Of a stretch of 64,000 nt of DNA, positions 1,559 through 28,448 are shown in pieces. The notes beneath the pieces were generated by a model. It saw only the letters and a program-made list of their open reading frames with translations, did no database searches and was not told the DNA's origin. The position numbers were made by a program, and so were the translations under genes. Source of the stretch: Treponema sp. (GTDB taxonomy: Bacteria > Spirochaetota > Spirochaetia > Treponematales > Breznakiellaceae); the NCBI GenBank assembly GCA_031274285.1, contig JAISQJ010000091.1:1-64000 (forward strand). Direction: 5' to 3'. Each line of letters starts with the position of its first letter. The first letter of the stretch is position 1.

Positions 1559-1655
1559 GTAGTGCCTCCTGTCCGCGCTCCCCGGCATTTTCGGGAGGGA
1601 AATGTATAACAGACAGAATATATAGCATAGTAAAAATAGCCGGCCCCGGTCAATA

Positions 1656-1686: not shown

Positions 1687-1763
1687 TGCCTAATCCCCCG
1701 GATGGTGTACACTGGCATTTGACACAGCATTTCAGCCCATCGTTTACGCAAGGGGGAAAGGTC

Positions 1764-2702: not shown

Positions 2703-2712
2703 GGGGGACAGG

Positions 2713-3588: not shown

Positions 3589-3594
3589 AAGCTT

Positions 3595-3615
3595 CATAGG
3601 CCTACTGGGCCTATG
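3595..3615 (+). other. Intergenic hairpin CATAGGCC-TACTG-GGCCTATG before the SBP gene
   Basis: Perfect 8-bp stem, 5-nt loop between permease stop and SBP ribosome-binding site. Confidence 0.55.
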
Positions 3616-3642
3616 TTAATTTTTATTTCCAGGAGGGAGAGT

Positions 3643-5223
3643 ATGAGAAAACTCACTGTAACCTTACTGTTCCTGTTTTCGGCGCTTATGGTATTTGCCG
3701 CCGGGCGGGGGCAGTCTTCCGGCGCATCCGGCGCCACGGCCGGCCCCGTTGCCATCACCGTGGAGATCTTCGACCGGGGTACCGACGGCGGCAAGACCGA
3801 TCCGGCCAACAACGAATGGACCCGGTGGATCAAGGCAAAGGTGCTGAAGGATGAAAACATCGACGTAACCTTTGTGGCGGTAAACCGCTGGACCGAGGAA
3901 GGGGACATGGTCAACCGGATGGCCGCCGGCGACGCGCCGGACCTCGCCTACACCTACAGCATGGACAATGTGCGGAGCTGGGGCATGCAGGGCGGGGTCT
4001 ATGACCTGACCCCCTATGTAGACACCTACCTCAAGGATATGAAGGAGCTGATGGGGGAGGATCCCCAGGTCCCCGGCGATAACCTCGTCTGGCACACCCA
4101 GGATCCCGATACCGGGGCCCTCTACGGCATTTCCAACAAATACATCTACACTGCCTCCCACAACACCTTTATCCGCAAGGACTGGCTGGACAAGCTGGGC
4201 CTCCCCGTCCCCAAGACCACCCAGGAATTCTATGAAACCATGGTGGCTTTCAAAAACAATGCGGCCAAACTGGGAGTAAACAGGGTGATACCCTACCTCA
4301 CCACCACCGACATCCGCTGGCAGGTCTACAACATCTTCCTGTCCTTTATGTCCCCCGATCTTTCCCCCAGGGAACGCTGGATAAACACAGTGGCCGAACG
4401 GCAGCTTACCATCCCCGGCGTCAAGGAGGCCCTGCGCTGGCTCAATAGGATGTATCTGGAAGGACTCATCGATCCGGATTTCCCGCTCTACGGCAGCGGC
4501 AGCACCACCCCCGACAACGTGATGAAAAGCGGCATTGTGGGCGCCTTCCAGCATAACTGGGATTACCCCTACCGGCAGAACACCATGATCCAGACCGATC
4601 TGGAAAAGAACATCCCCGGCGCCAAGTACATCCCCATCGATCCCTTTACCCGTTCCGACGGCATTACGCCCAAGCGGGGTTCCTCGGCCGCGGGAGGGCT
4701 TATCCTCTTTGTGCCCAAGTCCAGCAAAAACCCCGAGGCCGCGCTCCGTTACGCCAACTGGCTGTGCCGGCCGGAAAACTACAATTTCCTGCAATTCGGG
4801 AACGAGGGGGTGAACCACACCCTGGTCAACGGCATTAAGGTACCCCTGGCGGCCACCGGCCCCTGGATTCAGAATTCCGGCGGCAACATCGACTACACCA
4901 TGAGTATCAACGGCTACGTGGTACCGGATGAACATTTCGGCCAGGTCCTTTCCGGCAGCTACCCCGGCATTCCCCCGGAAGAAGTTACCGCCGCCTACCG
5001 CATGTCTTCGCTCTACGCCGTACCGGAGCCCTATGTAAAGACCGCCATTACGTCGCTGGCCCCTATCCGGCAGGTTATTGTTGATAAGGACCAGGCCCTG
5101 TGCGTCAATCTTATCTGCGCCAGGCAGGGCGAGTTTGACCGGATTTGGAACGAAGGTATAAAAGACTGGCTTGATTCCGGCGCTCAAACCGTTATCGACG
5201 AACAGCGGGCCAAGTACCGGTAA
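3643..5223 (+). CDS. Extracellular solute-binding protein (LplA-like), paralog 1
   Basis: Signal peptide MRKLTVTLLFLFSALMVFA; SBP fold sequence; follows cognate permeases; AGGAGG RBS. Confidence 0.85.
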   Translation: MRKLTVTLLFLFSALMVFAAGRGQSSGASGATAGPVAITVEIFDRGTDGGKTDPANNEWTRWIKAKVLKDENIDVTFVAVNRWTEEGDMVNRMAAGDAPDLAYTYSMDNVRSWGMQGGVYDLTPYVDTYLKDMKELMGEDPQVPGDNLVWHTQDPDTGALYGISNKYIYTASHNTFIRKDWLDKLGLPVPKTTQEFYETMVAFKNNAAKLGVNRVIPYLTTTDIRWQVYNIFLSFMSPDLSPRERWINTVAERQLTIPGVKEALRWLNRMYLEGLIDPDFPLYGSGSTTPDNVMKSGIVGAFQHNWDYPYRQNTMIQTDLEKNIPGAKYIPIDPFTRSDGITPKRGSSAAGGLILFVPKSSKNPEAALRYANWLCRPENYNFLQFGNEGVNHTLVNGIKVPLAATGPWIQNSGGNIDYTMSINGYVVPDEHFGQVLSGSYPGIPPEEVTAAYRMSSLYAVPEPYVKTAITSLAPIRQVIVDKDQALCVNLICARQGEFDRIWNEGIKDWLDSGAQTVIDEQRAKYR

Positions 5224-5245
5224 GCTGATTTTTACGAGTCGATCC

Positions 5246-5266
5246 GGGCTTATGGTAACATAGCCC
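5246..5266 (+). other. Intergenic imperfect hairpin GGGCTTATG-GTAA-CATAGCCC before SBP paralog 2
   Basis: Inverted repeat read from sequence, same relative position as the hairpin before SBP1. Confidence 0.4.
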
Positions 5267-5295
5267 TACAATTTTAATTCCCAAGGAGGGAAAAA

Positions 5296-6882
5296 ATGAG
5301 AAAGCTTGCCTTAGTTGTCATGCTTGTGTTTTCAGCGGCCATGGTTTTTTCAGGAGGGCGGGGGCAGTCCTCCGGTACGTCCGGCACATCGGGTCCGGCC
5401 AGGATCACCGTGGAGATCTTTGACCGGGGCACCGACGGCGGTAAAACCGATCCCACCAACAACCGGTGGACCGCGTGGATCAAGGAAAAACTGCTTAAAG
5501 ATGAGAACATCATCGTAGACTTTGTGCCCGTACCCCGGTTCGACGAGACCCAGGCCCTGATTAACCTGATGGCCTCCGGATCGCCCCCGGATGTGGCCTA
5601 CACCTACAGCCAGAGCGATATTACCAACTGGGGTGAGCAGGGCGGCATCTTTGACGTGGCCCCCTACCTTGATACCACCCTCAAGGACCTTAACGCGTTC
5701 CTGGGCCCGGACGAGGGGAATCCGGGGAAGGGCCTGATCGAGCGTGCCAGGAACAACACCACCGGCCAGCTCTTTTCCATGCCCGCCCGGCGTATGAACA
5801 CGGCCATGCGGAATGTCTTTATCCGCCAGGACTGGCTGGACAAACTGGGCCTCCCCCTGCCCAGGACCCGGCAGGAATACTACGACACCCTGGCTGCCTT
5901 TAAGGAGCGGGACCCCGGCGGGGTAGGCAGAGATCGTGTTATCCCCTTCACCATGAGTATCGATGTGCGCTGGCATGCGGGGAATATCCTGGACTCCTTT
6001 ATCGACGTCAACCTGAGCGACAAGGAACGGTGGATCAATGCCGCGGCGGAACGGAATTTCCTGCTCCCCGGCTACAAAGAGGGGGTCCGCTTCCTGAACC
6101 GGATGTACAATGCCGGCCTTATCGACCGGGATTTCCCCCTCTACAAAGACGATACGACCGTGAACAACCTGATCAAGAGCGGGGTGGTGGGGTCCTTCAG
6201 CCAGAACTGGGATCAGATTTACCGGGAAGGGGACGCCCTCCTTTCCGATTTACAGAAGAACGTGCCCGGCGCCATGCTGGTCCCCGTGGACTGTATGGAA
6301 AGCTCCGACGGCCTTACCCGCAAGGCGGCTTACGATGCGGCGGGGATTTTTTACTTCATTCCCAAGACCTGCAAGAACCCCGACGCGGCCATGCGCTATA
6401 TCAACTGGCTTGCCAAGTATGAAAACTACCACTTCATCCAGACCGGCCCCGAAGGGATTGTCCATAACATCGTTGACGGCGTTCTCAAGCTGAACCCCGC
6501 GGCCTCCGATGGCTGGATTCAGAACAGCGCCCAGAACATCGATTACACCCTGATGATGAACGGCCTGTTCCTGGAGACCAGGGAAAAGAGCATCCAGGCT
6601 ATTGCCGCGGGCTACCCCTGGCCCGTCGATATGGTGTCCAATGCCTACAACCTGGCCATGACCAACGCCCGGCCCGCCCTGGTGGTTATTACCAAGTCCC
6701 CCCTGACCGTGGAGGGCCCCATAAGGCAAACCCTGACTGACAAGGGGGAGGTCCTCTTTGTGGAATCCATCACCGCCCCGGCCAACCGGTTTGACGCGGT
6801 CTACGATGCGGGGCTTGTCGATTGGAAGGCCTCCGGCGCGGACGATGTGGTGGCGGAACGCCGGGCCAAGTATCCTGAGTAA
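5296..6882 (+). CDS. Extracellular solute-binding protein, paralog 2
   Basis: MRKLALVVMLVFSAAMVFSGGRGQSSGTSG...; shares ITVE(I/V)FDRGTDGGKTDP with paralogs 1 and 3. Confidence 0.85.
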   Translation: MRKLALVVMLVFSAAMVFSGGRGQSSGTSGTSGPARITVEIFDRGTDGGKTDPTNNRWTAWIKEKLLKDENIIVDFVPVPRFDETQALINLMASGSPPDVAYTYSQSDITNWGEQGGIFDVAPYLDTTLKDLNAFLGPDEGNPGKGLIERARNNTTGQLFSMPARRMNTAMRNVFIRQDWLDKLGLPLPRTRQEYYDTLAAFKERDPGGVGRDRVIPFTMSIDVRWHAGNILDSFIDVNLSDKERWINAAAERNFLLPGYKEGVRFLNRMYNAGLIDRDFPLYKDDTTVNNLIKSGVVGSFSQNWDQIYREGDALLSDLQKNVPGAMLVPVDCMESSDGLTRKAAYDAAGIFYFIPKTCKNPDAAMRYINWLAKYENYHFIQTGPEGIVHNIVDGVLKLNPAASDGWIQNSAQNIDYTLMMNGLFLETREKSIQAIAAGYPWPVDMVSNAYNLAMTNARPALVVITKSPLTVEGPIRQTLTDKGEVLFVESITAPANRFDAVYDAGLVDWKASGADDVVAERRAKYPE

Positions 6883-6935
6883 GCCTTTGTTCATACGTTA
6901 GGCTGCTAGGGTCTAACGAAGTTTGCGGACAAGCG

Positions 6936-6968
6936 GGGATCGCGGGTAAGGCTGCGGTCCCTTTTTTT
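6936..6968 (+). terminator. Probable intrinsic terminator after SBP paralog 2
   Basis: gggatcgc...gcggtccc stem (one G-U pair) followed by a run of seven T. Confidence 0.6.
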
Positions 6969-6991
6969 AATTACCAGCCCACAAAAAAATA

Positions 6992-7020
6992 TTGACAGAT
7001 TATGTGTATACACTTATTCT
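6992..7020 (+). promoter_or_regulatory. Sigma-70-like promoter with palindrome GTGTATACAC in the spacer
   Basis: TTGACA (6992-6997), 17-nt spacer, TATTCT (7015-7020); perfect palindrome at 7004-7013. Confidence 0.65.
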
Positions 7021-7040
7021 ATAAAGTAGGAGTATATAAC

Positions 7041-7265
7041 ATGAAGAATATAACGTTAGCAATAGATGAAGATATTTTAACCCTAGGCCGGGAATATGCA
7101 CAAAGGAATAATATTTCATTTAATAAACTTGTTAGGAATTTAATTACTGAAACAGTAAAACCATCATCAAAAAATTGGCTTAGTGAAACTATTAAATTGA
7201 TGAATCAATCTAACGGTTCTTCAAAAGGGGAAAAATGGACAAGGGAAGAATTGCATCGTGGCTAA
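7041..7265 (+). CDS. VapB-like / DUF6364-like antitoxin
   Basis: MKNITLAIDEDILTLGREYAQRNNISFNKLVRNLITETV...: ribbon-helix-helix-like small protein overlapping the downstream PIN gene. Confidence 0.75.
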   Translation: MKNITLAIDEDILTLGREYAQRNNISFNKLVRNLITETVKPSSKNWLSETIKLMNQSNGSSKGEKWTREELHRG

Positions 7266-7686
7266 AATATTTTTTGATACGAATATATTAGTATATACAC
7301 TTGACACAAATAATGCAGACAAACAAAAAATGGCTCAAAATATTCTTATAAAAATTAGTGAAAATGAAAGACCTGTTATTTCAACACAGGTGTTGCAAGA
7401 ATTTTATTATGCTTCTACAACAAAAATAAAAGCCGATAAAATTTTGGTGAAAAATATTCTACATAGCTTCACTAATATGGAAACAGTGCAAGTTAATATG
7501 AATATAATAGAACAGGGAATAGACATAAGTATTCTGTCACAAATATCATTTTGGGATGGATTAATAATAGCTGCCGCCGAATATGCCAGATGTTCAGTAA
7601 TATTGTCAGAAGATTTAAATGACGGGCAAATCATTAGAGGAATAGAAATAAAAAACCCATTCAAGATACAAAATTTCAGTTTTTAA
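7258..7686 (+). CDS. PIN-domain toxin (VapC-like ribonuclease)
   Basis: MAKIFFDTNILVYTLDTNN... with the FDTN(I/V)LVY motif; conserved acidic positions further on (SFWDGLIIAAA, ILSEDLNDGQ). Confidence 0.85.
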   Translation: MAKIFFDTNILVYTLDTNNADKQKMAQNILIKISENERPVISTQVLQEFYYASTTKIKADKILVKNILHSFTNMETVQVNMNIIEQGIDISILSQISFWDGLIIAAAEYARCSVILSEDLNDGQIIRGIEIKNPFKIQNFSF

Positions 7687-7692
7687 GATGCC

Positions 7693-8490
7693 CTACAGCC
7701 CCTTTTTGGGGATCGCCTTTGAAGGTGAAAAACCCATAAGAGCTTTGAACTGCTTGTAAAAATGGTAAATGTCGGAGAAACCGCAGTGTTCCGCCGCATC
7801 CTTCACGGAGTATTCCCCGCTTTTTAACATATTTTCCGCGTTTCTGATCCGGGTTTTAATGATGTATCGGTGCATGGAAAGCCCGGTCTTTGCCCGGAAG
7901 AGGGCGCCGCAGTATACCTCGTTAAGCCCCACCATGGCCGCCATTTTTTGTACCGTGATCTTTTCAAAGTAGTGGTTGGTAATATAATACATGATTTTTT
8001 TAATTCGGGGATCCTCCTGGGAAACCTTTATTTTGTACTCAATAAGTTCAAAGAGGCGGTGCAGGATTAAGAGGAGGAACCCCCGAGTCTTTATGGTATA
8101 GCCGGGCTGTTTGTCCAGCCAGGCAAAGTCCAGTTCCTGGAACAGGTGGATAATGTCCCCCTGCATTCCGATACGGCTTACCAGGGGGAAGGGCAGGGCC
8201 GCGGCCTTCCCCGCGCCGTCCTTGAGGGCGAAATCCACGGCAAAGCAGTGCATAAGCCGGTCGGGAAAGGTGATCCCCGCCCGTATGGAATTGGCGGGAA
8301 CGCAGAGTAGGTCTCCGGCCGAGAGTTCCCGGCTTATGCCGTTGATCGTATACCGGGCGCTGCCGGACAACAGATACGTAAGGTCATAGATGGGCAAAAA
8401 CTGCTCCGATATGCGCCAGTTTGGACCGCAGCGGCGGTGAATAAAGTAGTCAATTTCGGGAACCAGGTTATACTCAATCTGAAAGGGCAT
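7693..8490 (-). CDS. AraC family transcriptional regulator
   Basis: N-terminal cupin-like region (SARYTINGISRELSAGDLLCVPANS), C-terminal HTH: DAAEHCGFSDIYHFYKQFKALMGFSPS. Confidence 0.9.
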   Translation of the reverse strand: MPFQIEYNLVPEIDYFIHRRCGPNWRISEQFLPIYDLTYLLSGSARYTINGISRELSAGDLLCVPANSIRAGITFPDRLMHCFAVDFALKDGAGKAAALPFPLVSRIGMQGDIIHLFQELDFAWLDKQPGYTIKTRGFLLLILHRLFELIEYKIKVSQEDPRIKKIMYYITNHYFEKITVQKMAAMVGLNEVYCGALFRAKTGLSMHRYIIKTRIRNAENMLKSGEYSVKDAAEHCGFSDIYHFYKQFKALMGFSPSKAIPKKGL

Positions 8491-8608
8491 AGTTCCCCTC
8501 CTTTTTTTCTTTAATCTATACCTAATCTCTTTGATTTTACCATACCCCGGAAGCAGGGTCCATGTTACCGTACAGCCTTAAAACTTTAATTCCCAAGGAG
8601 GGAAGAAA

Positions 8609-10192
8609 ATGAGAAAGCTGGCTTTAGTTGTAATGCTCGTGTTTTCAGCGGCGGCGGTTTTTTCGGGAGGGAGGGGGCAGTCCCCCGATACATCCGGCTC
8701 GCCGGGTCCGGCCAGGATCACCGTGGAGGTCTTTGACCGGGGCACCGACGGCGGCAAGACCGATCCCACCAACAACCGGTGGACCGCGTGGATCAAGGAA
8801 AAGCTGCTCAAAGACGAGAACATCATCGTAGACTTTGTGCCGGTGCCCCGGAACAGCGAAACCCAGACTCTGATCAACCTAATGGCCGCAGGCGATCCCC
8901 CGGACATAGCCTTTACCTATACGCAGTCCTATATTACCGCGTGGTCCGAGCAGGGCGGTATTTTTGACATGGCCCCCTACCTGGATACCACCCTAAAAGA
9001 CCTCAAGGCCTTTCTGGGTCCCGATAAGGCCCTTCCCGGCCGGGACATGATCCAGCGTGCCCGGAACAACACCACCGGCCAGGTTTTTGCCATTCCCGCC
9101 CGCCGCATGAATGTGGCTTACCGCAATCTCTTTATCCGCCAGGACTGGCTGGACAAGCTGGGCCTCCCCCTGCCCAGGACCCGGCAGGAATACTACGACG
9201 CCCTGGTTGCCTTTAAGGAGCAGGACCCCGGCGGGGTGGGCAGGGATCGGGTTATACCCTTTACCATGAATGATGCGCATTTTGATACCCTGAATATTGC
9301 AGAATCCTTTATCGATCCCCGGATGAGCGATAAAGACCGGTGGATCAATGCGGTGGCGGAACGCTCGCTCCTGATGTCCGGTTATAAAGAGGGGATCCGG
9401 TTCATGAACAAAATGTACAACGCGGGCCTCGTGGACCGGGATTTCCCCCTTTACGGTCAGGGTACCGGCATGGCCAACCTGATAAAGAGCGGGGTGGTAG
9501 GCTCTTTTCTCAATAACTGGGATCAGATTTACCGGGAAGGGGACGCCCTCCTTACGGACCTACGGAAGAACGTACCCAATGCCATGTTTGTTCCGGTGGA
9601 CTGCATGGAAAGCTCCGACGGCCTTACCCACAAGCAGTCCTACGATGCGGCGGGCCTCTATTTCTTTATTCCCAATGCGTCCAAGAACCCCGACGCGGCC
9701 ATGCGCTACCTCAACTGGCTTGCCAAGTATGAAAACTACCACTTTATCCAGACCGGCCCCGAGGGGATCGTCCACACCATTGTTGACGGCGTTCCCAAGC
9801 TGAACCCCGCGGTCGGCGACGGCTGGATTCAGAACAGTTCCCAGAACATCGACTATACCCTGATGATGAACGGCCTGTTCCTGGAGACCGAGGAAAAGAG
9901 CATACAGGCCATTGCCGCAGGCTACCCCTGGCCCGCCGAAATGATTGCCAACGCGTACAACCTGGCCATGACCAACGCCAAGCCTCTTCCCGTGGTCGTC
10001 ACCAAGACTCCGCTTACGGTGGAGGGCCCCGTAAACCAAACCCTGGTTGATAAGGGGACCGTTGTCCTGACCGAGGCTATCACCGCCCCGGCCAACCGGT
10101 TTGACGCGGTCTACGACGCGGGAGTCGCGGATTGGCGGGCCTCCGGCGCGGACGCGGTGGTGGCGGAACGCCGGGCCAAGTTTCCTGAGTAA
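8609..10192 (+). CDS. Extracellular solute-binding protein, paralog 3
   Basis: MRKLALVVMLVFSAAAVFSGGRGQSPDTSG...; very similar along its length to paralog 2, with the same RBS leader (AATTCCCAAGGAGGGAA). Confidence 0.85.
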   Translation: MRKLALVVMLVFSAAAVFSGGRGQSPDTSGSPGPARITVEVFDRGTDGGKTDPTNNRWTAWIKEKLLKDENIIVDFVPVPRNSETQTLINLMAAGDPPDIAFTYTQSYITAWSEQGGIFDMAPYLDTTLKDLKAFLGPDKALPGRDMIQRARNNTTGQVFAIPARRMNVAYRNLFIRQDWLDKLGLPLPRTRQEYYDALVAFKEQDPGGVGRDRVIPFTMNDAHFDTLNIAESFIDPRMSDKDRWINAVAERSLLMSGYKEGIRFMNKMYNAGLVDRDFPLYGQGTGMANLIKSGVVGSFLNNWDQIYREGDALLTDLRKNVPNAMFVPVDCMESSDGLTHKQSYDAAGLYFFIPNASKNPDAAMRYLNWLAKYENYHFIQTGPEGIVHTIVDGVPKLNPAVGDGWIQNSSQNIDYTLMMNGLFLETEEKSIQAIAAGYPWPAEMIANAYNLAMTNAKPLPVVVTKTPLTVEGPVNQTLVDKGTVVLTEAITAPANRFDAVYDAGVADWRASGADAVVAERRAKFPE

Positions 10193-15077: not shown

Positions 15078-17084
15078 ATGGTAGCGGAGTACGACTGCTG
15101 GTTTCAGCGGCGGGACGCGGGACCGGACCGGGTAGGCCTGGACCGGCTTTACCGGGGTGAAGAATCCCCCCTCCTGGACCATGCGGCCCTTGAATACCGC
15201 CGGGGCATGGAAAAATGCTTCGGCATTCCGGTAAGGCCCCCTGCCCTTACGGTAGAGCCCTCTGCCGCGGAAGGGGGTCCCGGTCTCCGGCTGGGGACCA
15301 TTCCCTATCTGAACAAAACCCGGGGCCTTGCCCTGACGGAACAGGGGCCTGAAGGTTTCGTCATCCGCTGGGAGCCCGGACGGCCGCTCATCGCGGGCCA
15401 GGATGGGCAGGGGACCCTCTACGGGGTCTACCGTTTCCTCTCCCTCCTGGCCCAGGGAAAATTACGGCCGGGGGATGAACTTGCCGAAACCCCCGCGGCC
15501 CCCCTTAGGATGATCAACCACTGGGACAACATGGACGGTTCCGTTGAGCGGGGCTATGCGGGGCTCTCCCTTTTCTTTAAGGACGGCCGGATCAGTTACG
15601 ACCGGGGGCGCATAGAAGACTATGCCCGGCTCCTGGCCTCCGTGGGGATAAACCGCCTTTCGATAAACAACGTAAATGTCCGGGGCCCGGCCAGGGAGCT
15701 TATCACCGAGAAACACCTCCCCGACGTAGCAGGCCTGGCGGATCTGTTCCGGCCCTTCGGCATACGGCTGCTTTTAAGCGTCAATTTTTCCTCCCCCATC
15801 TCCGTCGGGGGGCTGGGGACTGCGGACCCCCTGGACAGGACTGCGGCGGCATGGTGGGAAAAGCAGGCGGACCTGGTCTACCGCTGCATCCCCGATCTGG
15901 CGGGTTTTCTTATCAAGGCAGATTCCGAAGGGGAGGCCGGTCCCTTCCGCTACGGCCGCAGCCATGCCGACGGGGCCAACATGCTGGCCGCCGCCCTGAA
16001 GCCCCACGGGGGCATCGTGGTGTGGCGCTGCTTTGTCTACAACTCCGCCCAGGACTGGCGGGATCAGAGCATAGACCGGGCCAGGGCGGCCTATGACCAC
16101 TTTAAGCCCCTGGACGGGAGCTTCGCGGATAATGTACTCCTGCAGGTAAAGCACGGCCCCTACGATTTTCAGGTTCGGGAACCCGTATCTCCCCTCTTCG
16201 GGGCCCTCGGCAAAACCCGGCACCTGATGGAACTGCAGATCACCCAGGAGTACACCGGGCACCAGATCGATCTCTGTTTCCTGCCTTCCATGTGGGCCGA
16301 TGTGATGGATTTCGATACCCCTGCCGGTCCCGTAAAGAAGCTGCTTGGGGCCTCCTCCCTGGAGGGGCTTGCGGCGGTGGGCAACGTGGGGCTCGACGGG
16401 AATTGGACCGGCCATACCCTGGCCCAGGCCAACCTCTACGGCTACGGGCGCCTGGCCTGGAATCCCGGCCTGGGGGCGGAGGAAATCGCCGGCGAATGGG
16501 CGGCCCTCTGCTTTGGTCCGGGGGATGCGGCGGAAACGGTGAAGTCCCTGCTCCTAAAGTCCTACCCGGCCTACGAGAAGTACAACGCGCCTTTCGGTCT
16601 CTGCTTTATGGTGAATCCCGGTATCCACTACGGACCCAGCCCGGAGGGCTACGAATTCTCCCGCTGGGGGACCTACCACCGGGCGGACCGGGAGGCCGTC
16701 GGCATAGACCGGACGTCGGCGGGGACGGGCTATACTGAGCAGTACGCCCCGGCCAAGGCGGCCCTCTTTGCGGACCCCTCCACCTGTCCGGAGAACCTTA
16801 TCCTCTTTTTCCACCGGCTCCGCTACGACTACCGGATGAAAAACGGCCAAACCCTGCTGCAGAACATCTACGATACCCATTTCGAGGGCTGTGACGAGGC
16901 GGAGGCCATGCTTACGCTCTGGACCGGCCTAAAGGGGCGCATCGGCGGGGAATGCTACGATTCGGTGCTGGCCAGGTTTGAAAGGCAGATAGAAAACGCC
17001 CGGCAGTGGCGGGATGTGGTAAATACCTATTTTTGGCGTAAAACCGGCGTGGGAGACCTAAAGGGCCGGAAGATTTACGACTGA
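15078..17084 (+). CDS. aguA: Alpha-glucuronidase, GH67
   Basis: GTLYGVYRFLSLL..., PLRMINHWDNMDGSVERGYAGLSLFF..., characteristic GH67 blocks. Confidence 0.92.
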   Translation: MVAEYDCWFQRRDAGPDRVGLDRLYRGEESPLLDHAALEYRRGMEKCFGIPVRPPALTVEPSAAEGGPGLRLGTIPYLNKTRGLALTEQGPEGFVIRWEPGRPLIAGQDGQGTLYGVYRFLSLLAQGKLRPGDELAETPAAPLRMINHWDNMDGSVERGYAGLSLFFKDGRISYDRGRIEDYARLLASVGINRLSINNVNVRGPARELITEKHLPDVAGLADLFRPFGIRLLLSVNFSSPISVGGLGTADPLDRTAAAWWEKQADLVYRCIPDLAGFLIKADSEGEAGPFRYGRSHADGANMLAAALKPHGGIVVWRCFVYNSAQDWRDQSIDRARAAYDHFKPLDGSFADNVLLQVKHGPYDFQVREPVSPLFGALGKTRHLMELQITQEYTGHQIDLCFLPSMWADVMDFDTPAGPVKKLLGASSLEGLAAVGNVGLDGNWTGHTLAQANLYGYGRLAWNPGLGAEEIAGEWAALCFGPGDAAETVKSLLLKSYPAYEKYNAPFGLCFMVNPGIHYGPSPEGYEFSRWGTYHRADREAVGIDRTSAGTGYTEQYAPAKAALFADPSTCPENLILFFHRLRYDYRMKNGQTLLQNIYDTHFEGCDEAEAMLTLWTGLKGRIGGECYDSVLARFERQIENARQWRDVVNTYFWRKTGVGDLKGRKIYD

Positions 17085-17102
17085 TTGGAAGGTGGGCCCG
17101 CA

Positions 17103-17117
17103 CCCAAACTGTTTGGG
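17103..17117. terminator. Palindrome CCCAAAC-T-GTTTGGG; possible bidirectional terminator or operator
   Basis: Perfect 7-bp inverted repeat with 1-nt centre just after the GH67 stop and just beyond the stop of the minus-strand remnant at 17124. Confidence 0.35.
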
Positions 17118-17123
17118 CCGCCC

Positions 17124-17240
17124 TTACCATTCCCGGGGCTTAAAGTCCGGGGGGACGTTTATCGTCATGGTGTCACCGGATTGGACGATCACGTACAGCC
17201 CGGCCTCTATGGCCGCTTCCACCTAAACCCTTACCTTCAT
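17124..17240 (-). pseudogene. Short decayed ORF remnant
   Basis: Reverse translation MKVRV*VEAAIEAGLYVIVQSGDTMTINVPPDFKPREW* with in-frame TAG at 17223-17225. Confidence 0.4.
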
Positions 17241-17407
17241 TCCCGCCCCGGAGGTCCCGTACTTGTCACTTGTCCCGGTTTATGCTAAAAGTGTAGTCTG
17301 ATGGGGTGTCTTGTCTGTGCCAATCCAAGCAACAGGGAAATATTCGGGGCGCCGGAGGAGATTCGGGCCCTTCTGCTTATCTAAGATGACTCGTTAAGGG
17401 GTAAAAC

Positions 17408-20400
17408 ATGCGGGATATTCAGGATTTTGACTCGATTATGATACGTTTGGCCTCCCCGGAAATGATCCGGGCCTGGTCCTACGGGGAAGTTAAGAAGCCG
17501 GAGACCATTAACTACCGGACTCTGCGGCCGGAAAAGGACGGTCTCTTCTGCGAGCGGATCTTCGGAACCACCAAGGAATGGGAGTGCTACTGCGGAAAGT
17601 TTAAGTCGATCCGTTACAAGGGGGTTATCTGCGACCGCTGCGGGGTCGAGGTGACCCACTTCAAGGTCCGCCGGGAGCGGATGGGCCATATTGAACTGGC
17701 GGCCCCGGTATCCCACATCTGGTACTATCGTTCGGTTCCCAGCCGTATGGGGCTGCTCCTTGACATGACCATGACGGCCCTCCGTTCGGTGCTCTACTAC
17801 GAGAAATACGTGGTTATCGACGCCGGGGAGACCGACTTAAAGAAGATGCAGCTCCTCTCCGAGGAGGAGTATTACGAGAACCAGGAGCGTTACGGCGGTG
17901 GTTTCAGCGCCGGTATGGGGGCGGAGGCGATCCGCACCCTCCTGGAAAACGTCAATCTGGATGAGCTGTCCGCGGAATTGCGGGTCAAGATGATCGAAAA
18001 GGGGGCCAAGAGCGACAAGCGGCTCCTTAAGCGTATCGAAATCGTTGAAAATTTCCGCAATTCCAAGAACAAGCCCGAATGGATGATCCTGGACGTGATC
18101 CCCGTCATCCCCCCGGATCTGCGGCCCATGGTGCAGCTTGACGGCGGTCGTTTTGCCACTTCGGACCTCAACGACCTGTACCGCCGGGTGATCAACCGGA
18201 ACAACCGGCTTAAGCGGCTCCAGATCCTCAACGCCCCGGATATCATCATCCGTAACGAGAAACGGATGCTCCAGGAGGCGGTGGACGCGCTGTTCGACAA
18301 TTCCAAGAAGAAGCGGGTGGTTAAGGGGGCCAGCAACCGGCCCCTCAAGTCCATCTCCGACATGCTCAAGGGGAAGCAGGGCCGGTTCCGGCAGAATCTC
18401 CTGGGCAAACGGGTTGACTATTCGGGCCGCAGCGTCATCACCGTGGGGCCTGATCTCAAGATGTGGCAGTGCGGGCTTCCCACCAAGATGGCCCTGGAAC
18501 TCTTTAAGCCCTTCATTATGAAGAAGCTGGTGGACAAGGATGTGGTCTACAACATCAAGAAGGCCAAGATCCTGGTGGAAGCCGAGACCCCGGAGGTCTT
18601 TGCCATCCTGGACGATGTGGTAAAGGAACATCCGGTACTTCTGAACCGGGCCCCCACCCTGCACCGGCTGGGTATCCAGGCCTTTGAGCCGGTCCTGGTG
18701 GAGGGAAAGGCCATTAAATTACATCCCCTGGTCTGCCATGCCTTTAACGCCGACTTTGACGGTGACCAGATGGCGGTCCACGTACCCCTGACCCAGGCGG
18801 CCCAGATGGAGTGCTGGACCCTGATGCTTAGCGCCCGGAATCTCCTGAACCCGGCCAACGGTAAGACCATCGTGTTCCCCTCCCAGGATATGGTGCTGGG
18901 GATCAACTTCCTCACCCGGATCAAGCCCAAGGCCAAGGGCCAGGGCCGGCGCTACCACACGGTGGAGGAAGTGCTTATGGCGGTGGAAACCAAGTCCCTG
19001 GACCGGGAAGCCTCCATCCGGGTGCGGCCCCCCAAGTCCCCTATATGGGATAAGCCCGGCCACGAGGCCGGCCTGGGGGAGGATGGTCTTCTTGAGACCA
19101 CCGCGGGACGGCTGGTGTTCAACGAGGAACTGCCCGAGGAGATTCCCTATATCAACTATGAGCTTAGGGACAAGGAACTGAGGGCCCTGATCGAGCATAT
19201 CTTCAGTGAAAAGGGTTCCTGGATCACGGTGAAGATGCTGGATGCCATCAAGGCCACGGGTTACAAATACGCCACGGTTTTTGGCGCCACCATCGGGGTG
19301 GATGACATTGTGGTACCCAAGGAAAAGCCGGAGATGATTGAAACGGCCAATAAGGCGGTGGAGGAGATCCAGCGGTATTGGCGCCAGGGTACCATTACCC
19401 CGGAGGAGCGGTACAACCGGGTGGTGGCGGTATGGACCAAGACCAACGATGACCTTACCAATATCATGATGAAGACCCTGGAGGCCGATCGGGACGGCTT
19501 TAATTCGGTGTATATGATGGCCAATTCCGGCGCCCGGGGAAGCCGCAACCAGATCCGCCAGCTTGCCGGTATGCGGGGTCTTATGACCAAACCTTCGGGG
19601 GACATCATCGAACTGCCTATCCGGTCCAACTTCAAGGAAGGGCTTTCGGTTATCGAATTCTTTATCTCCACCAACGGCGCCCGGAAGGGGCTGGCGGATA
19701 CGGCCCTTAAAACCGCCGAAGCCGGCTACCTTACCCGGCGGCTGGTGGACATCGCCCAGGATGTGGTGGTGAACGAGGATGACTGCGGTACGATCAACGG
19801 GATAACCTACTCCGCCATCAAGGACGGGGAAGATATTGTGGAACCCTTAAGCGACCGTATCGTGGGCCGCTATACCCTGGAACGGGTTAAGCACCCCATT
19901 ACCGGGGAACTTATCATCGATGTGAACGAAGAGATCACCGAGGCGATTGCCGCCACCATCGAAAAGGCCGGGATCGAGTCGGTGCGGATCCGCACGGTCC
20001 TTACCTGCGAAGCGGAACACGGGGTATGCCGCAAATGCTACGGTCGGAATCTTGCCACCAACCGTTCGGTGGATATCGGCGAAACCGTGGGAACCATCGC
20101 GGCTCAGTCCATCGGTCAGCCGGGGACTCAGCTTACCATGCGGACCTTCCATATCGGCGGCGTTTCTACCAAGGCCAGCGAGGAAAACCGCACCTTCCTC
20201 AAGTACCCGGTTTATATCCGGGATATTACCGGGGCCCATGTGGAGATGCCCGATGGTCACTGGCTCTTTACCCGCAAGGGCTACGCGGTGGTCAACAAGG
20301 TGCTGCAGGAATATAAGCTGGAAAGCCAGGATGTCCTGTTGGTGGAAAGCGGCAAGCGGATCATCCGGGACGAGCCGATTATCAGGCGGGGGGACCGGGA

Positions 20401-21754: not shown

Positions 21755-21762
21755 AAAAACCG

Positions 21763-21792
21763 GAGCCGGGGAGAAAACCCGGCTCTTTTTTT
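21763..21792 (+). terminator. Intrinsic terminator after rpoC
   Basis: gagccggg-gagaaaa-cccggctc followed by T-tract. Confidence 0.85.
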
Positions 21793-21831: not shown

Positions 21832-23247
21832 GTGGGTATGGCTACAAATATTGCGGTGATGGTGCTTTATTTTGGGGTGACCATTGGGATTGGCCTTTAC
21901 TTTGGCGGTAAAAAGACCGAATCTTCCTCGGATTATACCGTCAGCGGTCGTAAGCTGGGGGGCTTTGTGTACCTCCTCACCATGATTGCCACCATGGTGG
22001 GCGCCAGTTCCGTCATGGGCGGGGTTTCCTATTGGTCCCGGCGGGGGCTCTCCCAAATCTGGTATTGGTTTGGGGGACACCTCCAGACCCTCATCTTCCT
22101 GCTTTACCTGGGCCCCCGGATCAACGCTTTTGGCCGGGAACATGGGGGAGAAACTATCGGCGACTGGTTTATATACCGGTACGGAAAGGTTTCAAAATTT
22201 CTGGCTTCGGTCTTGATTGCCCTGGCCTATGTGGCTATTACGGCCTTCCAGTATTTGGCCATGGCGGTGATTTTGAACCTGGTCTTTAATATCCCCTTTA
22301 ACGTGGCCCTGCTTATTACCTCCGTGGTGGTGGTGTTTTACACCTCGGTGGGCGGCCTTTGGGCGGTGGTAACGACGGATATTTTTCAGGGTATCCTTAC
22401 CTGGCTGGGGGTTATCGTTATGGGCATCCTGTTTTACTCCCGGGCCGGCGGGATTCAACCGATTATTAAGGCGCTGCCCCCGGAGCATCTTAGGTGGTTT
22501 GGCAATGTTACCCCCTGGAACGCCTTCGCTTCCATGCTCACCCTGGGCCTGGGGATTATTTCCTGGCCCGATGTTTGGCAGCGGATCTACGCCGTAAAAA
22601 ATATCAGGACCTACCGCCAATCTACCGTGGTGAATCTTATCATCGGGATTTTTCTGACCGCCGCCGTCTGCGGCCTGGGCTTTGCTTCCCGGGTGTTGAT
22701 GCCGGATTATTCCGGTTCACCGAACAATATGCTGCCCCTGATGATTCTTAATTATTTCCCCAATGTGGTGGGGGCGATCTTCTTTGCCGTCCTTTTGGCG
22801 GTGATCATGGGTTCCGCGGATTCAGTCCTCCTGGTAAGCGGCATCATTATTTCCAAGGATATTATTGAGCCCTTCTTTAAGAGGCCCCGGACGGATAAAG
22901 AAATTCTGCGGTTTAGAAAAATTGTTACCGCCGTTACCGGATTTTTTACCCTGATCGTGTTGTTCTTTAGTACCGATATGTTCACCCTCTGGGTGATGAG
23001 CGCCGACATTACGGGGGCTACCCTGGCGGTACCGATCCTCTTTGGCTTTGCCTGGAAGCGGCCGGACGAGCGGGCTGTCTTGGCGTCCATAATTTTTGGC
23101 TTTGCGGGCTGGCTTGTCTTTACGGTATTCAAATTCCCGGTCCCCATAAACGCCATTTTGCCCGGGGCCCTGCTCTCCCTTATCGCCTATGTGGTGACCG
23201 CTTTCGCGGCCCCGCCGAGGAAGGGGAAGGCGCCCGCTCATGCCTGA
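21832..23247 (+). CDS. Sodium:solute symporter family (SSS) transporter
   Basis: Multi-TM protein; GASSVMGGVSYWSRRGLSQIWYWFGG, SADSVLLVSGIIISKDI. Confidence 0.9.
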   Translation: MGMATNIAVMVLYFGVTIGIGLYFGGKKTESSSDYTVSGRKLGGFVYLLTMIATMVGASSVMGGVSYWSRRGLSQIWYWFGGHLQTLIFLLYLGPRINAFGREHGGETIGDWFIYRYGKVSKFLASVLIALAYVAITAFQYLAMAVILNLVFNIPFNVALLITSVVVVFYTSVGGLWAVVTTDIFQGILTWLGVIVMGILFYSRAGGIQPIIKALPPEHLRWFGNVTPWNAFASMLTLGLGIISWPDVWQRIYAVKNIRTYRQSTVVNLIIGIFLTAAVCGLGFASRVLMPDYSGSPNNMLPLMILNYFPNVVGAIFFAVLLAVIMGSADSVLLVSGIIISKDIIEPFFKRPRTDKEILRFRKIVTAVTGFFTLIVLFFSTDMFTLWVMSADITGATLAVPILFGFAWKRPDERAVLASIIFGFAGWLVFTVFKFPVPINAILPGALLSLIAYVVTAFAAPPRKGKAPAHA

Positions 23248-24628
23248 TTTTGATCTGGTTATCGCCGGGGCCCGGGTCCTTGATCCCGAGACCGGCCTGG
23301 ATGAAACGCTGAATGTGGGGCTTTTGGACGGCCATATTGCCGCCCTTACCATGGCCCCCCTGCGGGGGGAGCGGGTCATTGAGGCCGCCTCCCTGGTCCT
23401 GTCCCCCGGTTTTATCGATATCCATACCCACGAAGACTTTCGGGAGACTCAACAAAGCGGCGAATTCCGCATACCCAGGGAAACTTCCGCCTGCGCCCTC
23501 CGTTCCGGGACTACCACCATCCTGGGCGGGAACTGCGGGGGCAGCAACTACCCGGTGGGGAACTACCTGGAAACCCTGGCCGCTGAAAAGCTGCCCATAA
23601 ACTGCCTGACCCTGGCGGGGAATTCCACGCTGCGGAAACTCCTGGGCCTGGACGAGTACGACACCGCTTCCCCTTCCCAGATCGCCGCCATGAAGGACCT
23701 GGCCGGGACGGCCATGGACGAGGGGGCCAGGGGAATCTCCTTTGGGCTGCAATACGCGCCGGGGACAAGTTTCGCCGAGGTCCTTGCCCTCTGCGAGGCG
23801 GTGCGGGAAAAAGATAAATTTTTCGCCGTCCACATGCGCTACGACACCCCCTCCCGGGCGGTGGAAACCGTGGAAGAGGTTATCGCGGCCGCCCGTATCA
23901 CCGGCGCGGCGCTGCAGATTTCCCACTACGCCGCCAATGTGTACGGCCTGGCAAAAAACGGCCTCTCCAATATCGACATCACCGCCCGGCTTATCGGGGA
24001 ATCGGGGGCCGATATTACGGCCGATGTGTACCCCTACGATACCTGGGCCACGGGGATACGGTCCGCGGTGTTTGACCAGGGCTTTGACGATTTTAATTTT
24101 AAGGTGACTGATTTAGAGATACTGTCCGGCCCCCTGGCGGGGCGGTACTGTACCCAGGAAATTTATGAAGAGCTTAGGCATAGCCCGCAGGAAACCTCTG
24201 TGGCCTGCCACAACGCCACCCCCATGCGGGACATTGAGGCGGCCTACCGGCTCCCCTTTGTGTGCCTGGGAAGCGATGCAAACATGACCCTGGGGGCCGA
24301 CGGACACAAGAAGGGGCATCCCCGGGCCGCCGGTTCCCCGGCCCGTTTCCTGCGGGAATTCGTGCGGGAGAAGGGACTTTTTTCCCTCATGGAGGGGATA
24401 CGGAAACTCAGCCTCCTCCCCGCCCAACGTTTGGGCCTTGGCCGCAAAGGCCGTCTGCAGGAGGGCTGCGATGCGGACCTCTGTCTCTTTGATCCCCAAA
24501 CTATCGGCGACCGGGCGGCCTTTGGGGTCGATGTCTGCGCCCTGCCCCCCACGGGGATCCGGGCGGTCATCGTGGGCGGTAAGCTTGCCTGGGAAGAAGC
24601 TCCGCCGGAAGTTCCGCCGCGGCCGTGA
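23240..24628 (+). CDS. N-acyl-D-amino-acid deacylase-like amidohydrolase
   Basis: DFDLVIAGARVLDPETGLDETLNVGLLDGHIAAL...LSPGFIDIHTHEDF...GGNCGGS...GISFGLQYAPGTSFAEV. Confidence 0.87.
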   Translation: MPDFDLVIAGARVLDPETGLDETLNVGLLDGHIAALTMAPLRGERVIEAASLVLSPGFIDIHTHEDFRETQQSGEFRIPRETSACALRSGTTTILGGNCGGSNYPVGNYLETLAAEKLPINCLTLAGNSTLRKLLGLDEYDTASPSQIAAMKDLAGTAMDEGARGISFGLQYAPGTSFAEVLALCEAVREKDKFFAVHMRYDTPSRAVETVEEVIAAARITGAALQISHYAANVYGLAKNGLSNIDITARLIGESGADITADVYPYDTWATGIRSAVFDQGFDDFNFKVTDLEILSGPLAGRYCTQEIYEELRHSPQETSVACHNATPMRDIEAAYRLPFVCLGSDANMTLGADGHKKGHPRAAGSPARFLREFVREKGLFSLMEGIRKLSLLPAQRLGLGRKGRLQEGCDADLCLFDPQTIGDRAAFGVDVCALPPTGIRAVIVGGKLAWEEAPPEVPPRP

Positions 24629-25440
24629 AGCTGGACATTGTCCGCGCCGATCCCGCGGGTAACATCACTATCTTTGTCCTTAACCGAATTGACGATCCCC
24701 TGCTCCGGGTCCGGGCCGCCAAAGCCCTGCTGGCGGAGCCTTCACTGGGGGCCGAACAGGTGGGCTTTGTCGTTCCCCCCGCCGGGCCGGGGGCATTGTG
24801 GCGGCTGGACATGATGGGGGGCGAGTTTTGCGGCAATGCGGCCCGGAGTTTCGGCCTCTATGCGGCCCGGGAGCTGGGTCTGAAGGGGAAGCTGTCGATC
24901 CCTGTTTCCGTAAGCGGAACCGATAGGCCCGTAACCGTGACCGCCGATGTTGAAGCGTTTTGGGCGGAGGCGGAGATACCCCTGCCCAGGGGCTTTGACA
25001 CCCTGGTCCATGAAGGCCGCCCCTACCCGGTCTATTTTTTTGAGGGGATCACCCATGTGATTGCCCAGGACGTAAACCCCGGCCGGGACCTGGTTGGTAA
25101 TCTTCTGGAGCTTGCGAAAAAAAAGATCCCTGAAAGGGGGGGAGAACATGCCCTTGATGCCTTTGGGGTGATGTTTTACGAAAAGCGGCGGTGTTTTATA
25201 CGGCCTGTGGTGTACGTGGCCGCCGCCGATTCCCTGGTCTTTGAATCAAGCTGCGGTTCGGGGACCGCGGCCCTGATCCTTGCATTGGCCGGGAATCTGA
25301 ACGACGGTGAGGGCCGCTGGGAGGTATCCCAGCCCGGCGGCCTTATAGAGGGGCGGGTGAAAAAAGAGGCCGGGGAAATCAAAGCCCTGAGCATCGGCGG
25401 CCCGGTGGCCCTGGACAGCCGGCGCCCGGTGATCCTGTAA
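24625..25440 (+). CDS. Diaminopimelate epimerase-fold protein; probable amino-acid racemase
   Basis: Two catalytic-Cys motifs GGEFCGNAARSFG and ESSCGSGTAALI; GTG start overlaps upstream stop. Confidence 0.8.
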   Translation: MKLDIVRADPAGNITIFVLNRIDDPLLRVRAAKALLAEPSLGAEQVGFVVPPAGPGALWRLDMMGGEFCGNAARSFGLYAARELGLKGKLSIPVSVSGTDRPVTVTADVEAFWAEAEIPLPRGFDTLVHEGRPYPVYFFEGITHVIAQDVNPGRDLVGNLLELAKKKIPERGGEHALDAFGVMFYEKRRCFIRPVVYVAAADSLVFESSCGSGTAALILALAGNLNDGEGRWEVSQPGGLIEGRVKKEAGEIKALSIGGPVALDSRRPVIL

Positions 25441-25483: not shown

Positions 25484-25687
25484 TTAGGCTACTACCTGGT
25501 ACCCCGCTTCGGCCACCGCCGCTTCCATCATGGCCTGGGTGACTTCCCCGTTATGGTTCACTTCGGCGCTGTTTTTTTTAAGGTTCACCTTGGCGGACTT
25601 AACCCCGCCGATGCCTTCCAGCGCTTCCTTTACGTGTTTTACGCAGTGTTCGCAGGACATCCCTTCGATCTTGAGAGCGGTCTTCAT
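25484..25687 (-). CDS. Heavy-metal-associated (HMA) domain protein, CopZ-like copper chaperone
   Basis: MKTALKIEGMSCEHCVKHVKEALEGIGGVKSAKVNLKKNSAEV: GMSCEHC metal-binding motif. Confidence 0.92.
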   Translation of the reverse strand: MKTALKIEGMSCEHCVKHVKEALEGIGGVKSAKVNLKKNSAEVNHNGEVTQAMMEAAVAEAGYQVVA

Positions 25688-26997: not shown

Positions 26998-27138
26998 CTA
27001 AGCCGGTATGGTAGTGTTTGAATCAAAGTAGGCCCTAACCTGTTTTGAACGCGTGAAGTATAAAAAACCGACAAGCAATAATCCCAATGACGCAAATATA
27101 CCGGTTATTAAAAACGCCGGATACGTTGCGTTTAATTT
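26998..27138 (-). pseudogene. C-terminal fragment of a membrane protein (remnant)
   Basis: Reverse translation KLNATYPAFLITGIFASLGLLLVGFLYFTRSKQVRAYFDSNTTIPA*: one clear TM helix, no start, abutting the 3' end of the SfsA-DUF123 gene. Confidence 0.45.
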
Positions 27139-28448
27139 TCGATTAATTTTTTAAAGGCCTCCACATGGCGGAAGCGGAGGAGGAGATCGATAAAAGCGGG
27201 GTTTTTTAGGGGCGGGTCCCTGAAGTAGAAGAGGTGGCTTTTGCAGCGGCAGTCTGAGGAGCCGAAGCGCGGGACCCCCCGGCCCCCCAGGTCCTCCAGG
27301 GCGGAGGCAAGATCGCATTCCAGGTTACGGTAGGAAAGGATGGGGTAGGCCTTGATCCGCTCCGCCAGGGCGCCGAGGTAGTCGATATGCCAGCGGCGTG
27401 TCTTGCGGACATGGCGCAGGTGGCGGCTTATGCGTTTGGACAGGTTTTTCCGGGCAGAACCGGCGTAGATGTACCAGCCTGCGTCGAAGTGCAGGGTCCC
27501 CAGGGCGCCGATGACGGTGTCCCGGGCTTGGGGGATTTCCAGCATCAGCATATAGCTTCCCCCGTTTCCGGCGGCCAGCGCGCCGTGGGAAAGGTCTACC
27601 GGCACCCGGGGGCGGGCCAGGTACGCGGTCCCCCGGTTATCGCAGCGGAGGAGGCACGCGTGGATCGCCACCGGCCCGCCCTTTCCTTTGCCTGAGTCTG
27701 CCGCTTTCTTGCGCCCGGCGGCTTTGGGAACGTTCCCGGTCTTGGGAAGTTCCGCCCCGTGGCCGTGGACGCTGAGGGCCGCGGCGAACTGCGGATCGGT
27801 GTGGAGGTTTGGGATGAACCGCTCCGGTTCCCCGTGGACGATCACGAAAAGCACGTGGCACCGGTAGCCCTGTGCGCAGAGGACCGCCAGTTCTTCCAGG
27901 TGTTTGAGGGCCCGCTCCGAGGGGGCATCGGGAAACATGGCGGCGCCGTATTCCACCAGGGAGCAGGCCTTTACCTCCACCAGGTGGCGGATTCCTTCCC
28001 GGTCAACACAGAGAAAATCGAACCGGGAATCCCCCAGGGTGAATTCCCCCCGGACCTCCGTGATGCCGGGGATGATTTCCCTGAGGGCCAGCTCCTCCAC
28101 CGCCTTGTTGGCCCGGGCGGAAAAGAGGGGGGCCACCCCGGTCCGGTAGTAGATTCCCACCGCAGTCCAGCCGGTTTTCGCCTTGGCTCCGGCATCCCGC
28201 TTTTCCAGAATGAGCCGGGCGCCGGGAATATCGCTGCCCCGGTATCCAAAAAATTCGATAAGCCTCCCCGGATTGGGGCAGTGGCAGGGGATCCTGGCGG
28301 GCGCGGCCTTGGCGGGAGATGACCCAGCGGGCACGGCTTTGGGTTTTTCATCTCCGGCGATGATGAGAAAACGGTTCGGCCGTTCCACAAACAGGGCTTC
28401 CCGGTCGTTGCGGAAGAGTTTTACGCTGAGGGCTTTTTTGTCAGCCAT
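27132..28448 (-). CDS. SfsA family protein fused to a DUF123 (GIY-YIG-like) domain
   Basis: SfsA-like N-terminus (FLIIAGDEKP...CHCPNPGRLIEFF..., LGDSRFDFLCVDREGIRHLVEVKACSL) then DUF123-like GSYMLMLEIPQARDTVIGALGTLHFDAGWYIYAGSARKNLSKRISRHLR...WHIDYL. Confidence 0.85.
   Translation of the reverse strand: MADKKALSVKLFRNDREALFVERPNRFLIIAGDEKPKAVPAGSSPAKAAPARIPCHCPNPGRLIEFFGYRGSDIPGARLILEKRDAGAKAKTGWTAVGIYYRTGVAPLFSARANKAVEELALREIIPGITEVRGEFTLGDSRFDFLCVDREGIRHLVEVKACSLVEYGAAMFPDAPSERALKHLEELAVLCAQGYRCHVLFVIVHGEPERFIPNLHTDPQFAAALSVHGHGAELPKTGNVPKAAGRKKAADSGKGKGGPVAIHACLLRCDNRGTAYLARPRVPVDLSHGALAAGNGGSYMLMLEIPQARDTVIGALGTLHFDAGWYIYAGSARKNLSKRISRHLRHVRKTRRWHIDYLGALAERIKAYPILSYRNLECDLASALEDLGGRGVPRFGSSDCRCKSHLFYFRDPPLKNPAFIDLLLRFRHVEAFKKLIEN

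What the first reader, a model, noticed from the sequence alone, without database searches (positions are those of the whole stretch)
21832..25440. Coupled transporter, D-aminoacylase and DapF-like racemase cluster
Three genes overlap at start/stop codons: SSS symporter, N-acyl-D-amino-acid deacylase-like amidohydrolase, and a DapF-fold enzyme with both catalytic cysteines. The order suggests import of an N-acyl-D-amino acid (or other D-amino acid derivative), deacylation, then racemization to the L form. The racemase seems unlikely to be the housekeeping DapF, given its context and divergent sequence around the motifs; it may be a substrate-specific racemase.
Basis: partly seen in the sequence, partly recalled or inferred. 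Interest (0 to 1): 0.6.

Follow-up and report, generated by a model that had tools for sequence, protein, structure and literature searches.

The report
Uptake, deacylation and racemase operon
Three overlapping genes in a termite-gut spirochaete look like a small salvage pathway that imports an acylated or peptide-linked D-amino acid, most likely D-histidine, frees it and flips it to the usable L form, using a histidine-racemase-type enzyme that public databases often mislabel as the cell-wall enzyme DapF.

Summary
Three + strand genes overlap by 8 and 4 bp behind a terminator-like hairpin after rpoC: SSS symporter (21832-23247), D-aminoacylase-like amidohydrolase (23240-24628) and a DapF-fold enzyme (24625-25440) with both cysteines. 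The third gene is not DapF. Its family profile scores 167 and 141 bits against the solved histidine racemases HisR and CntK but at most 26 against DapF structures, its best Foldseek matches are CntK and HisR, and it keeps the residues proposed to bind histidine in HisR. Twenty-four LysA-encoding relatives lack both it and dapF; one relative has both. Homologues sit in histidine-utilisation operons (Clostridia, Cetobacterium, one spirochaete), beside an amino-acid ABC transporter, or beside deacylases. The amidohydrolase is almost exclusive to this partner: 10 of 12 orthologue copies lie directly upstream of the racemase (one more is cut by a contig end). One copy instead ends a dipeptide-ABC operon. 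It lacks two alpha-carboxylate residues (Lys, Ser) of true D-aminoacylases, so its exact substrate is open. Best reading: import of an N-acyl- or peptidyl-D-amino acid, probably D-histidine, then deacylation and racemisation. No activity is shown.

The parts
21762..21786 (+). terminator-like hairpin after rpoC, separating rpoC from the three-gene unit
   Evidence: 9-pair stem, 7 G-C pairs, followed by TTTTTT
21832..23247 (+). SSS-family sodium:solute symporter, 471 aa (start may be the ATG at 21838)
   Evidence: PF00474 139.9 bits; nearest curated models PanF/PutP far below their cut-offs
23240..24628 (+). D-aminoacylase-like amidohydrolase, 462 aa
   Evidence: best solved relatives N-acyl-D-glutamate deacylase (3gip, 140 bits) and D-aminoacylase (1m7j, 133 bits); orthologues 58-80%
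24625..25440 (+). histidine-racemase-type (HisR/CntK group) cofactor-independent racemase, 271 aa, GTG start
24823..24831 (+). codons for E67-F68-C69 (equivalents of HisR Glu65 and catalytic Cys67)
   Evidence: sequence, alignments, residue roles from PMC11602996
25243..25254 (+). codons for E207-S-S-C210 (equivalents of HisR Glu206 and catalytic Cys209)
   Evidence: sequence, alignments, residue roles from PMC11602996

Best explanation
The three genes form one translationally coupled operon for salvage of a D-amino acid held in an amide (N-acyl- or X-D-amino acid), most likely D-histidine. The SSS symporter brings the compound in with sodium. The amidohydrolase, whose N-terminus shows no evident signal peptide and which is therefore probably cytoplasmic, hydrolyses the amide. 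The DapF-fold enzyme, a member of the HisR/CntK group, racemises the freed D-amino acid to the L form by a two-cysteine, cofactor-free mechanism. Shown here: gene order and overlaps, family placement, conserved catalytic residues, recurring deacylase-racemase linkage, and histidine-utilisation context of homologues. Inferred: a single transcript, the direction D to L, histidine as substrate in this spirochaete branch, and the nature of the acyl group.
For: Racemase: NCBIfam matches only HisR (110 bits) and CntK (94). A profile of 18 orthologues scores 167 bits to HisR, 141 to CntK and at most 26 to DapF. AF2 model pLDDT 92.5; top nine Foldseek hits are CntK/HisR. The equivalents of HisR Asn18, Glu65, Cys67, Glu206 and Cys209 are conserved in the amidohydrolase-, ABC-, M20- and hut-linked homologues. 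Histidine context: hut enzymes beside homologues in L115, L120, L125, L126, L128, L132, L124 and L136, hutU-hutI-hutG-racemase on a Cetobacterium plasmid, hutH-permease-racemase-hutU in spirochaete G029; 8 of 29 non-spirochaete loci against about 1.4% expected (rough). Amino-acid transport context: binding protein and permease beside the racemase in about 15 spirochaete loci, binding protein also in L116/L134; it resembles the Arg-bound 6det and His-bound 4ohn. Deacylase coupling: 10 of 12 amidohydrolase orthologue copies directly upstream of a racemase, one more at a contig end; an unrelated M20 amidohydrolase plus the same YfcC transporter family beside the racemase in two Lachnospiraceae; one amidohydrolase copy ends a dipeptide-ABC operon.
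Against: No activity data. The racemase is far below the HisR and CntK equivalog cut-offs (110 vs 400, 94 vs 300) and the hut-linked homologues form other branches of the tree. The genome lacks a detected hutH and has hisD, so neither L-histidine catabolism nor auxotrophy is evident there (assembly 83.5% complete). The amidohydrolase lacks the Lys and Ser that bind the alpha-carboxylate in characterised D-aminoacylases. Most relatives carry the racemase without the amidohydrolase (72 of 200 family genomes vs 11). The M20 partner belongs to a family that usually acts on L-amino-acid conjugates (own knowledge). One second-copy homologue lies beside tyrosine phenol-lyase.
Confidence: 0.48

Rival explanations
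1. Same salvage logic, but the spirochaete racemase branch acts on another amino acid (arginine, ornithine, lysine, glutamine or an aromatic one), having diverged from the histidine racemases.
For: Low scores against the HisR/CntK equivalog models; the linked ABC binding protein's best structural match is arginine-bound and lysine/arginine/ornithine is its best NCBIfam model; YfcC is a putative basic-amino-acid antiporter family; one homologue beside tyrosine phenol-lyase.
Against: All residues proposed to contact histidine in HisR through side chains are kept; where the metabolic context is diagnostic it is usually histidine.
Confidence: 0.27
2. The racemase runs L to D: it makes D-histidine (or another D-amino acid) for export, a metallophore or the cell envelope, and the deacylase trims a precursor.
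For: CntK makes D-histidine for staphylopine (PMC11602996); a homologue on a Priestia plasmid sits in an opine-metallophore cluster; racemases are reversible; M20 deacylases beside two homologues might yield L-amino acids.
Against: No metallophore synthase or opine dehydrogenase seen near the window operon or its amidohydrolase-linked relatives; the neighbours are transporters of importing families and, in homologues, catabolic enzymes; a D-aminoacylase-like hydrolase fits release of a D-amino acid.
Confidence: 0.12
3. The enzyme is the organism's diaminopimelate epimerase, and its neighbours are incidental.
For: No classical dapF found in the genome while a LysA-like gene is; Pfam DAP_epimerase is the only, sub-threshold, Pfam hit.
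Against: 24 LysA-bearing relatives of the same family, 13 of them at least 90% complete, lack both this gene and dapF; G056 has both. Profile score to DapF structures 26 bits or less against 167 to HisR.
Confidence: 0.03
4. The amidohydrolase is a cyclic amidase or an amidase for another compound class, and racemase and amidohydrolase share only regulation.
For: Missing Lys254 and Ser291 equivalents; below the nearest subfamily cut-off (NF006560 249 vs 340 bits); amidohydrolases are functionally versatile.
Against: Keeps all metal ligands, catalytic Asp, and the Tyr and Arg of the carboxylate clamp; linkage to the racemase in 10 of 12 copies and at several separate places on the racemase tree; one copy behind a dipeptide ABC transporter.
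Confidence: 0.1

Closest known systems
HisR, histidine racemase of Fusobacterium nucleatum (PMC11602996; PDB 9cr1, 9cr6)
   Same: Fold, both catalytic cysteines, Asn18/Glu65/Glu206 equivalents; best profile match
   Different: About 28% identity; no transporter or deacylase partner described for HisR, whose role is unknown; scores below the HisR equivalog cut-off
CntK, histidine racemase of the staphylopine metallophore pathway (PDB 6jis, 6l4l)
   Same: Fold and catalytic motifs; second-best profile match
   Different: About 25% identity; no metallophore genes near the window operon; GITH where CntK has TYVH
DapF, diaminopimelate epimerase
   Same: Fold and two-cysteine chemistry
   Different: Profile scores at most 26 bits; not required by LysA-bearing relatives
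D-aminoacylase (1m7j) and N-acyl-D-glutamate deacylase (3gip), subtype V amidohydrolases
   Same: Metal ligands, catalytic Asp, Tyr194/Tyr285/Arg379 equivalents
   Different: Lys254 to Ala and Ser291 to Ala; separate subfamily nearest to PRK09061
hut (histidine utilisation) operons with a DapF-like gene, e.g. Cetobacterium somerae plasmid NZ_CP092522
   Same: Homologous racemase beside hutU-hutI-hutG
   Different: The window operon has a deacylase in place of hut enzymes, and no hutH was detected in its genome

Membership tests
HisR/CntK cofactor-independent histidine racemases | two catalytic cysteines in GGEFCGN and ExxCxSG motifs | tested here: met
   C69 and C210 invariant
HisR/CntK cofactor-independent histidine racemases | residues proposed to bind histidine (HisR Asn18, Glu65, Glu206) | tested here: met
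   N13, E67, E207 invariant
HisR/CntK cofactor-independent histidine racemases | fold nearer to HisR/CntK than to DapF | tested here: met
   E 4e-18 to 2e-22 against about 5e-14 for the best DapF
HisR/CntK cofactor-independent histidine racemases | NCBIfam equivalog cut-offs (HisR 400, CntK 300 bits) | tested here: not met
   110 and 94 bits, so not an equivalog of either; filed as 'HisR/CntK-type', not as HisR or CntK
HisR/CntK cofactor-independent histidine racemases | racemisation of histidine | not testable with these tools
   needs enzyme assay
DapF | family score above curated cut-off (TIGR00652, PF01678) | tested here: not met
   PF01678 26.5 < 34.7; no TIGR00652 match in the genome
DapF | present wherever meso-DAP is decarboxylated (LysA present) | tested here: not met
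   24 LysA-bearing family genomes lack both this gene and dapF; note that the LysA-like genes mostly score below the lysA cut-off
D-aminoacylase / N-acyl-D-glutamate deacylase | subtype V metal site (Cys, two His), HxH and catalytic Asp | tested here: met
   HTH, GNCG, HMR, SH and GSD conserved in the window protein
D-aminoacylase / N-acyl-D-glutamate deacylase | alpha-carboxylate clamp Lys254, Tyr285, Ser291, Arg379 (PpOngB numbering) | tested here: not met
   Tyr and Arg kept, Lys and Ser replaced by Ala; hence 'D-aminoacylase-like', not filed as a member
D-aminoacylase / N-acyl-D-glutamate deacylase | hydrolysis of N-acyl-D-amino acids | not testable with these tools
   needs enzyme assay
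SSS sodium:solute symporters | PF00474 above gathering cut-off over the full length | tested here: met
   139.9 vs 22.8 bits, residues 35-423

The most novel reading that the evidence does not exclude
An undescribed D-histidine salvage route, in which N-acyl- or peptidyl-D-histidine is imported, hydrolysed and racemised, in termite-gut spirochaetes. It has parallels in gut Clostridia and Fusobacteriota, where the same racemase family feeds D-histidine into the hut pathway, implying that many gut 'DapF' annotations are histidine racemases and that D-histidine compounds are a real nutrient in these guts.
Probability: 0.4. Interest if true: 0.66.

Novelty: new variant of a known kind. Interest (0 to 1): 0.47.

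Why it matters
The physiological role of HisR is unknown; the Fusobacterium paper found only a small growth lag on knockout and no telling neighbours. The hut-linked and deacylase-linked contexts collected here give a testable role, catabolism or salvage of D-histidine, and a set of enzymes to assay. They also suggest that a group of proteins named diaminopimelate epimerase in gut bacteria are misannotated. If the substrate is confirmed, it would raise the question of where D-histidine conjugates in guts come from.

Tried and rejected
Housekeeping DapF was rejected. Histidine auxotrophy as the driver was not supported: hisD is present. L-histidine breakdown in the same genome was not found (no hutH). 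Co-occurrence of the racemase with HutH-like genes within the family is weak (8 of 26 vs 3 of 34, p = 0.04, relatedness not controlled, most hits below the hutH cut-off) and is not relied on. A fixed transporter partner was rejected: SSS, YfcC, PAAT ABC or none. Paper searches for D-histidine in hut operons found nothing in the open-access library, which is not proof of absence elsewhere. Distant amidohydrolase homologues (31-39%) showed no hut or HisR-type partner; two lie tail-to-tail with PLP alanine-racemase-like genes, too weak to use.

Full report
What is there. Three + strand ORFs overlap by 8 bp and 4 bp: an SSS symporter (21832-23247), an amidohydrolase (23240-24628) and a DapF-fold protein (24625-25440). 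A terminator-like hairpin follows rpoC at 21762-21786. The window lies in a 3.13 Mb, 188-contig, 83.5% complete assembly (G000) whose relatives with the racemase are Treponema and Spirochaetaceae MAGs that I take, from their isolate names and genus, to be largely from termite guts. The same order, rpoC-SSS-amidohydrolase-racemase, occurs in a congeneric assembly (G001). A third genome, G035, has SSS-amidohydrolase-racemase on a contig without rpoC.

The racemase. Pfam's DAP_epimerase model scores below its cut-off. The only NCBIfam matches are the histidine racemases HisR and CntK, both far below their equivalog cut-offs. Against PDB sequences the single protein hits only HisR and CntK chains (the CntK entries are labelled diaminopimelate epimerase there). 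A profile of 18 orthologues gives HisR 167, CntK 141 and DapF at most 26 bits. The AlphaFold2 model is confident (pLDDT 92.5, pTM 0.90) and its nine best PDB matches are CntK and HisR, with DapF next at about 5e-14. The HisR paper proposes Asn18, Glu65 and Glu206 as histidine contacts around Cys67 and Cys209 (PMC11602996); all five positions are kept in the window protein and in every context group aligned.

Not DapF. TIGR00652 finds no dapF in the window's genome. A LysA-like gene is present there (265.9 bits, below the lysA cut-off of 297.9) and in 47 of the 60 family genomes compared, but 24 LysA-bearing ones lack both the racemase and dapF, 13 of them at least 90% complete, and racemase presence does not follow LysA (built). 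G056 carries both a dapF over cut-off and the racemase.

Context of homologues. A scan of GTDB genomes with the racemase alignment gave 549 relatives, of which the best 80 were kept. Searches show four recurring contexts. (a) The amidohydrolase directly upstream, in the window, G001, L072, L073, L100, L102, L103, L104 and L106, with SSS upstream in the window, G001 and L100 and YfcC in L072 and L073. (b) A divergent amino-acid ABC transporter (binding protein and permease) in about 15 spirochaete loci, and a homologous binding protein in the clostridial L116 and L134. (c) Histidine-utilisation genes: HutH in L115, L120, L125, L126, L128 and L132; formimino-group steps plus GlmL in L124 and L136 (Peptoniphilus; names of the formimino enzymes by eye); and HutH-permease-racemase-HutU in the spirochaete G029 (L054). 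A Cetobacterium somerae plasmid has hutU-hutI-hutG-racemase. (d) An M20-family amidohydrolase followed by a YfcC transporter in two Lachnospiraceae, L129 and L133. A Priestia plasmid homologue sits in an opine-metallophore cluster, as CntK does. The rough chance of eight or more hut neighbours among 29 clostridial loci is about 5e-9, treating loci as independent, which they are not.

Tree. On a maximum-likelihood tree of 85 homologues the window protein groups with G001 and with L058-L060, whose genomes place the racemase directly after rpoC without the amidohydrolase. The amidohydrolase context needs about four changes on the tree and the hut context three; both are clustered beyond shuffles. 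The pairing was therefore gained, moved or lost several times. HisR, CntK and the G029 copy are long branches, so the depth of the tree is uncertain.

The amidohydrolase. Its closest solved relatives are N-acyl-D-glutamate deacylase and D-aminoacylase. Comparison with the residue assignments for this family (PMC12017989) shows that metal ligands, catalytic Asp, Tyr194, Tyr285 and Arg379 are kept, but Lys254 and Ser291 are both Ala in the window protein. Those residues are described there as strictly conserved in the characterised groups, so I call it D-aminoacylase-like and do not file it as a member. In 200 genomes of the spirochaete family, 12 copies at 58-80% identity (the window's own included) exist in 11 genomes. 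Ten lie directly upstream of a racemase; one (G131) is cut by the end of its contig; one (G180:C52) instead ends a dipeptide-type ABC operon. That last linkage supports a peptide-like or N-acyl substrate. The racemase itself occurs in 72 of the 200, so it has a life without this partner.

Transport. The SSS protein is generic and gives no substrate. The binding protein of the ABC transporter linked to the racemase in relatives resembles an arginine-bound and a histidine-bound structure about equally (6det, 4ohn).

Mechanism, with status. Step 1, sodium-coupled uptake: inferred from family. Step 2, amide hydrolysis releasing a D-amino acid: inferred from fold, catalytic residues and linkage. 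Step 3, racemisation by a thiolate pair: strongly implied by conserved residues; histidine as substrate inferred from homology and the hut context of homologues. Direction D to L: inferred from the transporter and deacylase. Weak points are the lack of hutH and the presence of hisD in the genome, the missing carboxylate residues, and the sequence distance from characterised histidine racemases.

Judgement. The chemistry is known in kind; the combination of deacylase and histidine-type racemase, and the histidine-utilisation setting of a family usually labelled DapF, were not found in the papers searched. I rate it a new variant of a known kind.

Noticed in passing
window 15078-17408: rpoC is preceded by a GH67 alpha-glucuronidase gene, and no rpoB-like sequence occurs anywhere in the window, whereas relatives have rpoB directly upstream of rpoC. 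Either a genomic rearrangement or a misjoined contig between about 17084 and 17408.
   Followed up: partly
window 27132-28448 (-): A fused protein with SfsA (N-terminal and RE domains) and a C-terminal DUF123 domain in one chain.
   Followed up: partly
window 25484-25687 (-): Small heavy-metal-associated (CopZ-like) protein convergent with the racemase gene.
   Followed up: no
window 3613-10192: Three related lipoprotein-like extracellular binding proteins (3613-5223, 5296-6882, 8609-10192) near a pair of sugar-type ABC permeases, with an AraC-like regulator between the second and third (names by eye, no domain search run).
   Followed up: no
L046 (G047:C75), 1577-5603: A second-copy racemase homologue lies divergent from tyrosine phenol-lyase and a sodium-dependent transporter; possible change of substrate.
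   Followed up: partly
L054 (G029:C111), 1-4631: A spirochaete with a second, more CntK-like racemase (180 bits to the CntK model) inside a hutH-permease-racemase-hutU cluster.
   Followed up: partly
L154 (NZ_CP092522), 5989-6777: A plasmid gene annotated diaminopimelate epimerase ends a hutU-hutI-hutG run: a likely misannotated histidine racemase.
   Followed up: partly
L139 and L141, about 4450-7146: Distant homologues of the amidohydrolase lie tail-to-tail with PLP alanine-racemase-like genes.
   Followed up: partly
family f1 genomes: Most genomes of the window's family encode a LysA-like decarboxylase without any recognisable dapF; how or whether they make meso-DAP is unclear.
   Followed up: no
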